DNA of 64,000 bases, taken from NCBI GenBank assembly GCA_024195265.1, contig JAJLRJ010000003.1:56915489-56979488 (forward strand), read 5' to 3'. The notes beneath the pieces were generated by a model. It was not told the DNA's origin and did not search any database. It saw only the letters and a program-made list of their open reading frames with translations. This stretch comes from Dendrophyllia cribrosa (lineage: Eukaryota; Cnidaria; Anthozoa; Scleractinia; Dendrophylliidae). Positions 16,472 through 45,290 of the stretch are shown here, in pieces. Both the position numbers and the translations under genes were made by a program. Positions within the stretch are counted from its first letter, which is position 1, and the number at the start of each line of letters is the position of its first letter.

Positions 16472-19400
16472 ATGAAAGCGCTTGTAGCTTTGCTGTTCAT
16501 TGTCTTCGCCCTGGTCGATGGATTCCCAAGTAATTATATTTATGCAACTGTTACACATTTTATCTTTTCAATTTGGATGACCATTATTTCAAACAGAAGT
16601 TAACTATCAAGCTCAATTACAACTCGCACGATCAACTTTTTACCATTTTTGCACGTATTTCTCCTTTGGGTTAAATTTTGGACCTCTGGGTTTTTAATCC
16701 ATGCATCACGATCAGGCAAAAAAAAAAATTGGAAGAAGAGTATCTGATAAATCTATTATCTGCAGGACCTGCAGAATTTTCTCCGGTACTGAGCACCAGT
16801 TGTGCGAATCTTGAGGTCGTCGAAAAATCAGTATTAATCCACTGACCTTGCTGGAGTGTGACGAAGAACTTCTTCCATTGAAAGACTAACATTTTTGTTG
16901 ATCTATCTACAGATATATTTAAGAACCGCCGACCTGAAAAATGTGCACATCAACCAGACGAAAACCGGAATTTTGAAGACTGGAAAGTGAAGGCTCCTTC
17001 TCGGGGAAGAAAAACAGGGAGAGGTTCTATGGGAGAACGCCAGGCAATACCATTCGGACCTTACGTCCGTTGGTGCGTCACCAACCAATGTGAGATGGAA
17101 AAGTGCGAAAGAATGAAGACGGAATTCAACTACATGGTGAATCCGCATCTGTCATGGTCCTGCATGATGAAAGACACCAAGGAGGAATGCATGCAGAGAA
17201 TCAACCATGGCGTCGCAGATATTATGACGGTTGAAGGGGAAGAGATCTACAAGGCAGGAAAGATGTACGATTTGGTTCCAATCATGTCTGAAATATCCTG
17301 TCCGTTTTTCGATTCGACATTTTCCAAATTCGAAGACGAGAATGGTCGCATCAAGCATTACTCCATCGCCCTGGTGAAGAAGACGAACACAAATATCAAC
17401 CGGTATCAAGACATGAGTCAGCGAAAATCATGTCACTCGGGAGTGGACAACGCAGCCACGTTCAAGTCTCCGATGTGTTCTCTCATCCACACGGGCGTCG
17501 TCCCGAAGGTCGGGAACGTGTACGAGAGCGCAGGAGAGTTCTTCAAAGAGAGCTGCGTTCCAGGTGTAAAGGATTATAAACACAACCCGAATATGACCAA
17601 TCCAGATTCTTTGTGCGCGATATGTAAAGGTATGTAGGAAATTTTAGTTTTCAATTTCTTTAAGGTGCAGTCAGTAACTTATTAATCATTGGCTAGCCTA
17701 AAAAAGTTTTTTACCGGCCAACTTTCAATTTTTCTATTTTGGTTTATAAGCCATTGCAGTCCTTCTGGAATTAAAAAAACAAAATCCCTGATCCTTGCTC
17801 TAATCTGGCATGTGAAAAATCTAATCATATCAATTTCTGCCATGTCGTCCGTATTGTAAGTTGTGCTCTGAAGAAAGTTCATAGTAGTTTATCTCGTGTT
17901 TCTTGGCTGTTGTCATTGCACTACTAATGCATGCAACATGATATACGCAAACCCCTGTAATGATCTGGAACGCATGTAAACAAGTCAAACCAGTTTAACC
18001 CCCGATAGTGATCAGCATCAAATTTCTCCATACTAGAGGTCATGATAACCTAACCCAAGATAAATTTTCTCAGCCCTCTCTTCACTACTCCTATAAGAAA
18101 TGTATGGATACAAGAAAGGAGAATTTGTTCTTTGATACTAGGATTAAAGGTTAACCCTTTTCAGACTTTTTTCTGCCAAAGTGTAAACTAGAGTAGTGTC
18201 GCTTTAATAGTTCTAAATTTTGAATCTGTGGATGAAATCCTGAGGTGTACGTTCGCATGGATGGTATGGATTTGTTTGTTCTTCAGTATTTTACAAAACA
18301 AACTTTGGCGTGTCTCATTCATGGGTTATCTCCGTTTTCGTTTGCTTTTTTCGGTTCAACAAACCTGCGAACCACCACATGATCTTTGCCGTCGAGAGTG
18401 AAGAAATCAGTGGCGATCTTCTCCCAAGTGTCTCACACGTGGACTAAATTTCTGGGGAGGAAGAGATTTCTGGGTGGGGGAAGCGCTGGTGATTTTGTCT
18501 GTGCTCTTAAATCGCGGGGAGGGGGGGGGGGATACTCCCCCAAAATACCTATACGGGTATGTGCCGCCCAACAGGTCGTGATTTTGGGACTCCTGATCTA
18601 GAACGGGGTATCCATTTTAGAGACGTTTCCTAGAACGGGGTATAATATTTCGAACGCACGAAAGCTTCAGATTATCAGCAGCCATTTTTCTAGAACGGGG
18701 TATTAAAAATTGACCTATTTCTAGAACGGGGTATCATTTTGAGTGCAAATTCTTTCTAAAACGGGGTCCAAATTTGGAGACCAGGGCGACACATACCCAC
18801 CCAAAATATACCCGAGTACCACCCAGCCCTCCCCCCCCCCCCCCCCCCCCCCCCCGGGACTTGATCAGTAGGTTAATAAATGGTAGCCACAAGGCAGATG
18901 TGGACCTCGTTATTTGTGTTTGTGTCGCTACAGGATTTTTTTTTAAAGAAAAGCAAAGCTTAAAGTCGGGCTTTCATAGTTGCAGATATTGTTTTCCAGC
19001 CTTGGCTTGCAGGATCTTTCTTTCAAAATCACGCGTTTCATTCTTGAAATATAAGCCAAAAGCAATTAAGCTGTGTCTTTATCGCTGGAGGACTTTGTTT
19101 GCATTATCTCGGGCGGCTTTTCTAATGTTTTCATTGTTCTAAAACAAAAAGGTATAATTTTCAACATCTCCAATTCCTTATCCTTATTGTGCACGAAAAA
19201 CAATATCACCTAAGTTTCCAAAGTTTTCACAGCCAAATATCTTAAACGCTTTCTCAATCCAGTTTTTTTTGGAAACTTTGCAAACTTGTCTTGTTTTTGT
19301 CGCGTTTTTCTTGTGGTTCGTAGATTAACCGTTCATCGGGCCAGTCCATCATTATACATGGCTTGGCTCGTAATAAGTACTTTTCCATTACGTTGTTTAT

Positions 19401-45290: not shown

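What the first reader, a model, noticed from the sequence alone, without database searches (positions are those of the whole stretch)
16472..45290. A secreted two-lobe transferrin relative fused to repeats and a new C-terminus
Eleven exons join with correct phases into a 1519-residue prediction combining a signal peptide, two transferrin-type lobes, a Trp-rich insertion, an acidic Cys-rich linker, Met/Gly/Lys tandem repeats and a Cys-rich then Trp/Asn/Asp-rich tail. The sea urchin major yolk protein and the fish otolith matrix protein are transferrin relatives with non-iron or mineral roles, so a matrix, yolk or mineral role in a coral is a reasonable but untested idea.
Basis: partly seen in the sequence, partly recalled or inferred. 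Interest (0 to 1): 0.88.

Follow-up and report, generated by a model that had tools for sequence, protein, structure and literature searches.

The report
Coral transferrin relative without iron sites
This coral gene appears to make a large secreted relative of the iron carrier transferrin that has lost nearly all its iron-holding residues and gained a methionine-rich repeat and a cysteine-rich tail; similar proteins labelled major yolk protein-like are already listed from coral skeletons, so it is a member of a known but poorly understood family.

Summary
Eleven exons (16472-45290, +) join in phase with GT-AG borders into 1519 residues. Pfam Transferrin matches lobe 1 and both halves of lobe 2. 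An Oculina prediction covers 98% of it at 53% identity, and a relative on a 4,776-base contig carries lobes and tail in one frame, so exon 11 is very unlikely to be a separate gene. The architecture is not unique: lobes, Trp-rich insertion, acidic Cys linker, Met-rich region, six-Cys domain and Trp tail recur in all three long relatives found, one named major yolk protein-like (Montipora). Only the repeat is species-specific. A protein of that name is in the Stylophora skeletal proteome (PMC7115838), so a skeletal-matrix role is the best reading; orthology to that entry was not tested. New here: lobe 1 keeps 0 and lobe 2 keeps 1 of 4 classical iron ligands, while two of five other transferrin loci in this genome keep all four in the lobe read; the tail weakly resembles cystine-knot growth factors but lacks the recalled ring pattern; a broken partial copy lies about 0.2 Mb away. 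Verdict: real and well reasoned, but a new member of a known coral family.

The parts
16410..16415 (+). TATAAA box about 60 bases before the start codon
   Evidence: pattern in the sequence; not tested
16472..16529 (+). exon 1: start codon and signal peptide (MKALVALLFIVFALVDGFP)
   Evidence: aligned with the starts of P0001 and P0003; signal peptide judged by eye
16913..17629 (+). exon 2: basic segment and first part of lobe 1 (PF00405 positions 1-171)
29009..29256 (+). exon 3: lobe 1
30795..31064 (+). exon 4: lobe 1
31651..31810 (+). exon 5: end of lobe 1, start of lobe 2
32352..32517 (+). exon 6: lobe 2, first half
33269..33460 (+). exon 7: lobe 2, first half
35713..35974 (+). exon 8: end of first half of lobe 2 and start of the Trp-rich insertion
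   Evidence: no other copy found in the genome
39245..39540 (+). exon 9: Trp-rich, Cys-poor insertion in lobe 2
   Evidence: no Pfam match, best PDB match E 0.2; no other copy found
40316..40902 (+). exon 10: end of insertion and second half of lobe 2
43687..45290 (+). exon 11: acidic Cys linker, repeats, six-Cys domain, Trp tail, stop codon
43689..43823 (+). acidic linker with six Cys (48% Asp+Glu over residues 986-1031)
43842..44487 (+). 33-base tandem repeat, 11-residue unit of the type GGQKGPMSDHK
44482..44745 (+). 21-base tandem repeat, 7-residue unit of the type GPMMDHR
44805..45092 (+). six-Cys domain, residues 1359-1454; weak likeness to cystine-knot growth factors
   Evidence: unsure
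45093..45287 (+). Trp/Asn/Asp-rich tail, residues 1455-1519
45341..45346 (+). ATTAAA, possible polyadenylation signal
   Evidence: pattern in the sequence; not tested

Best explanation
The gene encodes a secreted structural protein of the coral skeletal organic matrix, the local version of the coral 'major yolk protein-like' family. Two transferrin lobes that no longer have a classical iron site serve as a folded scaffold; the acidic Cys linker (net charge about -21) could bind calcium or crystal surfaces; the basic Met/Gly/Lys repeat (net charge about +35) is a flexible, fast-changing spacer; and the six-Cys domain, by its likeness to cystine-knot domains, could join chains by disulphides, which would suit an insoluble matrix. 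Shown: gene structure, transferrin lobes, loss of classical iron ligands, conservation of the architecture in coral relatives. Inferred: secretion, skeletal location in this species, calcium binding, cross-linking.
For: Gene model with conserved junctions. PF00405 in lobe 1 and both halves of lobe 2. Iron ligands D, Y, Y, H read E, H, F, Q in lobe 1 and N, S, Y, N in lobe 2; over the four coral proteins lobe 1 keeps 0 of 4 and lobe 2 keeps 1 or, in Oculina, 2. A relative named major yolk protein-like (P0003), and a protein of that name in the acid-insoluble skeletal matrix of Stylophora, matched there to an entry of an earlier Stylophora proteome (PMC7115838 tables). Major yolk protein in the list of ortholog groups of stony corals absent from two anemones (PMC10662330 section 3.3). 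A melanotransferrin-like protein in the skeleton list of the octocoral Corallium rubrum (PMC7853314, passage). Charged low-complexity repeats and acidic stretch.
Against: No proteome or transcript of this species was seen. The Stylophora sequence was not at hand, so it may be another transferrin with the same automatic name. Skeletal proteomes can hold tissue contaminants: the same table lists a condensin subunit and a Ras-like protein. That paper's ortholog table shows no match for it in the two Acropora proteomes. The main texts of four other papers on skeletal proteins and calcification hold none of yolk, transferrin or MYP, among them the Stylophora-Oculina comparison. In lobe 1 the replaced ligand positions are themselves constant (Glu, His, Gln in 4 of 4 proteins), which could mean a new metal site rather than a mere scaffold.
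Confidence: 0.57

Rival explanations
1. A metal carrier or antimicrobial metal-withholding protein in mucus or body fluid, using zinc, copper or a changed site; Met/His repeats might hold copper.
For: Transferrin fold; in lobe 1 three of the four ligand positions hold the same new residues in 4 of 4 coral proteins (Glu127, His168, Gln341); 23 His and 14% Met in the repeat; papers say that sea urchin major yolk protein binds zinc (PMC5854732, PMC2702171) and, in one of them, also iron (PMC2702171; passages).
Against: The classical ligands and the anion-binding Arg are gone from both lobes but for one Tyr in lobe 2; lobe 2's fourth position varies (N, H, R, S); two of five other loci in this genome keep all four ligands in the lobe read and could carry iron.
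Confidence: 0.2
2. An egg or nutrient storage protein, as in sea urchins, where the transferrin relative called major yolk protein feeds gametes.
For: The family name; a coral study lists 'major yolk protein' as a source of nutrients during gametogenesis for Acropora millepora (PMC3650039, passage); the protein is large and rich in methionine.
Against: The coral yolk proteins named in a gonad transcriptome are vitellogenin, egg protein and Euphy; the word transferrin does not occur in that text (PMC7579821, passages). The name may be automatic. A conserved Trp-rich insertion and six-Cys domain are more than storage needs.
Confidence: 0.17
3. Two neighbouring genes were joined: a transferrin ending at exon 10 and a separate repeat protein in exon 11.
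For: Exon 11 lies behind a 2.8-kb intron and holds domains unrelated to transferrin; tail-only predictions exist (P0004-P0007), three on contigs of 976 to 1,438 bases and one on 20,592 bases.
Against: Three of three long relatives hold lobes and tail in one protein; P0002 lies on a 4,776-base contig too short for introns like these, so it is probably a transcript. Exon 11 has an acceptor in the right phase.
Confidence: 0.03

Closest known systems
Coral 'major yolk protein-like' proteins (P0003 Montipora capricornis, P0001 Oculina patagonica; Stylophora XP_022786918.1 by name only)
   Same: For P0001 and P0003: whole order of parts, 53-54% identity, six invariant Cys in the tail domain
   Different: The repeat differs between species (16-38% identity in aligned columns); P0001 is named only hypothetical protein; the Stylophora sequence was not compared
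Vertebrate melanotransferrin, lactoferrin, serum transferrin
   Same: Two lobes of the PF00405 family; best PDB match is melanotransferrin 6xr0, E 8.3e-70
   Different: Iron ligands lost, about 200-residue insertion in lobe 2, acidic linker, repeats and tail added
Sea urchin major yolk protein (toposome)
   Same: Large secreted transferrin relative, called an iron-less calcium-binding transferrin in PMC5854732 (passage); about 1350 residues (PMC2702171, passage); a Cys-poor insertion in the second lobe is recalled, not checked
   Different: No sequence compared here; PMC2702171 says that it binds iron; the coral Met-rich repeat and six-Cys tail are not known to me from it
Cystine-knot growth factor superfamily (Norrin, VWF CTCK, VEGF)
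   Same: Tail models match these above others; sub-threshold PF00007 match in Oculina
   Different: All scores weak; the recalled CxGxC and CxC ring pattern is absent (CFGE and C-x4-C instead)
Other transferrin loci of the same genome (contigs C12 and C21)
   Same: PF00405
   Different: In the lobe read, two of five loci keep all four ligands, one three and two two (counted by the rule)

Membership tests
Transferrin (PF00405) | Profile match above the curated cut-off in each lobe | tested here: met
   151.5 bits lobe 1; 80.5 and 77.5 bits for the halves of lobe 2; cut-off 20.3
Iron-binding transferrins | Asp, two Tyr and His ligands plus anion-binding Arg in a lobe (human positions recalled) | tested here: not met
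   Lobe 1 E/H/F/Q, Arg->Asn; lobe 2 N/S/Y/N, Arg->Lys
Coral major yolk protein-like family | Full-length homology with a protein so named | tested here: met
   P0003, 54% identity over 69% in one local alignment; global alignment covers all parts
Coral major yolk protein-like family | Presence in the skeletal matrix | not testable with these tools
   Reported for Stylophora by name (PMC7115838); no data for this species
Echinoderm major yolk protein | Closer to echinoderm MYP than to other transferrins | not tested
Cystine-knot superfamily | Profile match to Cys_knot | tested here: inconclusive
   PF00007 E 0.064, 14 bits against cut-off 24, in 1 of 6 tail sequences scanned (window tail, five relatives)
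Cystine-knot superfamily | Fold match | tested here: inconclusive
Cystine-knot superfamily | CxGxC and CxC ring cysteines (recalled pattern) | tested here: not met
   CFGE and C-x4-C are invariant in the 7 sequences

The most novel reading that the evidence does not exclude
Stony corals turned an iron carrier into a mineral-matrix protein: a transferrin with both iron sites dismantled was fused to charged, fast-evolving Met-rich repeats and a divergent cystine-knot domain that links chains into an insoluble scaffold, and this fusion is a stony-coral invention shared by the two main coral lineages (Oculina and Montipora; lineage placement recalled).
Probability: 0.33. Interest if true: 0.68.

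Novelty: new member of a known kind. Interest (0 to 1): 0.48.

Why it matters
Coral skeleton proteins shape how reefs calcify, yet in the papers seen here the family labelled 'major yolk protein-like' is a name in tables. Showing that it is a transferrin without a classical iron site, with a conserved six-Cys domain and a species-specific repeat, gives concrete parts to test (calcium or other metal binding, cross-linking, crystal effects) and warns against reading the name as a yolk role. It would be another case, beside the sea urchin and (recalled) otolith proteins, of transferrins taking other jobs.

Tried and rejected
Exon 11 as a separate gene: rejected. A yolk role from the name: not supported by the one gonad paper looked into. 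Classical iron carriage: ligands lost. My first count of ligands took the residue next to the first Tyr ligand in each lobe; one search places it by counting from conserved Cys and from the strand that ends in a basic pair, and replaces that count. Tail as a known Pfam domain: no match in the window tail, one sub-threshold in Oculina. Tail profile against PDB sequences: 0 matches up to E 10. Below the cystine-knot rows come many serpins, and below those unrelated proteins mixed with further cystine-knot rows. Trp-rich insertion: no Pfam match, best PDB E 0.2. Search for longer proteins with the Oculina tail: only the query itself among 7 candidates; it missed P0002 and P0003, so its reach is poor. 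A comparison with the coral's own cystine-knot proteins was not possible because the PF00007 genome search did not complete. Paper searches (listings, top rows only) showed no title or passage describing this architecture in a coral; the library lacks most subscription journals and supplements could not be read. Searches served background and gave little. A candidate extra exon at 30290-30480 was dropped because exons 3 and 4 join in phase and agree with the relatives.

Full report
Gene structure. The Oculina relative P0001 hits each of exons 2 to 11 in place by tblastn, at E 4e-16 or better. A TATAAA lies about 60 bases before the start codon and an ATTAAA about 50 bases after the stop codon; neither is tested.

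One protein, not two. Of 1308 candidates three proteins passed the threshold: P0001 from Oculina patagonica (1516 aa, 53% identity over 98%, hypothetical protein), P0003 from Montipora capricornis, named major yolk protein-like (1378 aa), and P0002, unnamed (1306 aa, on a contig of 4,776 bases, without the signal peptide). All three hold lobes and tail in one chain. P0002's contig is too short for introns like these, so it is probably a transcript (inference).

Transferrin lobes. PF00405 scores 294.7 bits on residues 1-986 and matches lobe 1 and each half of lobe 2 when scanned apart. The closest solved structure by sequence is melanotransferrin (6xr0, E 8.3e-70). Lobe 2 is split between profile positions 155 and 162 by about 200 residues that are 8% Trp and have two Cys; this stretch has no Pfam match and a best PDB match of E 0.2.

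Iron sites. Human transferrin ligand positions are recalled, not from a call; they were placed by counting from conserved Cys and from the strand that ends in a basic pair. Lobe 1 has Glu, His, Phe, Gln for Asp, Tyr, Tyr, His and Asn for the anion-binding Arg; lobe 2 has Asn, Ser, Tyr, Asn and Lys. Over the four coral proteins lobe 1 keeps 0 of 4 and lobe 2 one (two in Oculina). In lobe 1 Glu127, His168 and Gln341 are the same in 4 of 4, so a changed metal site is not excluded. The same genome has five other transferrin loci on contigs C12 and C21 (counts there are lower bounds). In the one lobe read for each, two of five keep all four ligands, one keeps three and two keep two (same counting rule by eye). 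Ligand loss is thus not unique to this gene, but loci with a full set exist beside it.

C-terminal part. After lobe 2 come an acidic linker with six Cys (48% Asp+Glu, charge about -21), a basic Met/Gly/Lys region (charge about +35, 23 His), a six-Cys domain and a Trp-rich tail. The six-Cys domain is 66-73% identical to the three long relatives, the Met-rich region only 16-38% in aligned columns: the composition is kept, the repeat itself is not. A search with the tail alone gave four short predictions among 11 candidates; a search for longer proteins with the Oculina tail returned only the query among 7 candidates and missed P0002 and P0003, so its reach is poor. In this genome the tail was found only in this gene and one broken copy, and the insertion only in this gene.

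Broken copy. On the same contig, minus strand, at C16:57152894-57159320, lies a partial copy with exons 1, 2 and 11; exons 3-10 were not found in the 30 kb fetched, and its two longest DNA matches are 90% and 92% identical. Exons 1, 2 and 11 carry frame breaks and exon 11 an early stop, so it is a pseudogene. The window gene is the only intact one found.

What is known. In Stylophora pistillata a 'Major yolk protein-like isoform X2' is listed among 60 skeletal proteins, in the acid-insoluble fraction, and is matched there to an entry of an earlier Stylophora skeletal proteome, with no match given for the two Acropora proteomes (tables seen, PMC7115838). A Montipora study puts major yolk protein among genes earlier reported for biomineralization within 225 ortholog groups present in stony corals and absent from two anemones (section read, PMC10662330). 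A melanotransferrin-like protein is in the Corallium rubrum skeleton list (passage, PMC7853314). The main texts of four other papers on skeletal proteins and calcification contain neither yolk nor transferrin. The link between those entries and this gene rests on the shared name through P0003, not on a sequence comparison with Stylophora.

Judgement. A skeletal-matrix protein is the best explanation (0.57); a metal-handling (0.20) or yolk role (0.17) is less likely. The finding is real and carefully read, but the family is known; what is added here is the loss of iron ligands, the conserved tail with a possible cystine-knot likeness, the species-specific repeat, and the broken partial copy.

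Noticed in passing
G000 C16:57152894-57159320, minus strand (L011-L013): Partial inverted copy of the gene with exons 1, 2 and 11, 90-92% identical over its two longest matches, with frame breaks and a stop: a pseudogene.
   Followed up: yes
window 20989-22950, minus strand, inside intron 2: 653-codon open frame with DDE_1 (E 3.1e-18) and a Tc5-type DNA-binding match just under its cut-off: a transposase, perhaps of the pogo/Tigger kind (label recalled).
   Followed up: partly
window 6708-8213, minus strand: 501-codon open frame that reads like a LINE reverse transcriptase (by eye).
   Followed up: no
window 10170-11540, plus strand: 456-codon open frame that reads like a Harbinger-type nuclease; a possible partner frame lies at 13395-14381 minus (by eye).
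   Followed up: no
window 43271-43342, minus strand, intron 10: tRNA match (RF00005, 43.6 bits), either a tRNA gene or a tRNA-derived repeat.
   Followed up: no
window 32536-32647: Run of 112 G in intron 6, shortly after exon 6.
   Followed up: no
G000 C12:43.008-43.063 Mb and C21:17.678-17.716 Mb: Five other transferrin loci with differing iron-ligand loss: four, four, three, two and two of four kept in the lobe read.
   Followed up: partly
window gene, model residues 127, 168, 341 (lobe 1): The three positions that held Asp, Tyr and His iron ligands are Glu, His and Gln in 4 of 4 coral proteins, as if kept for something else.
   Followed up: partly
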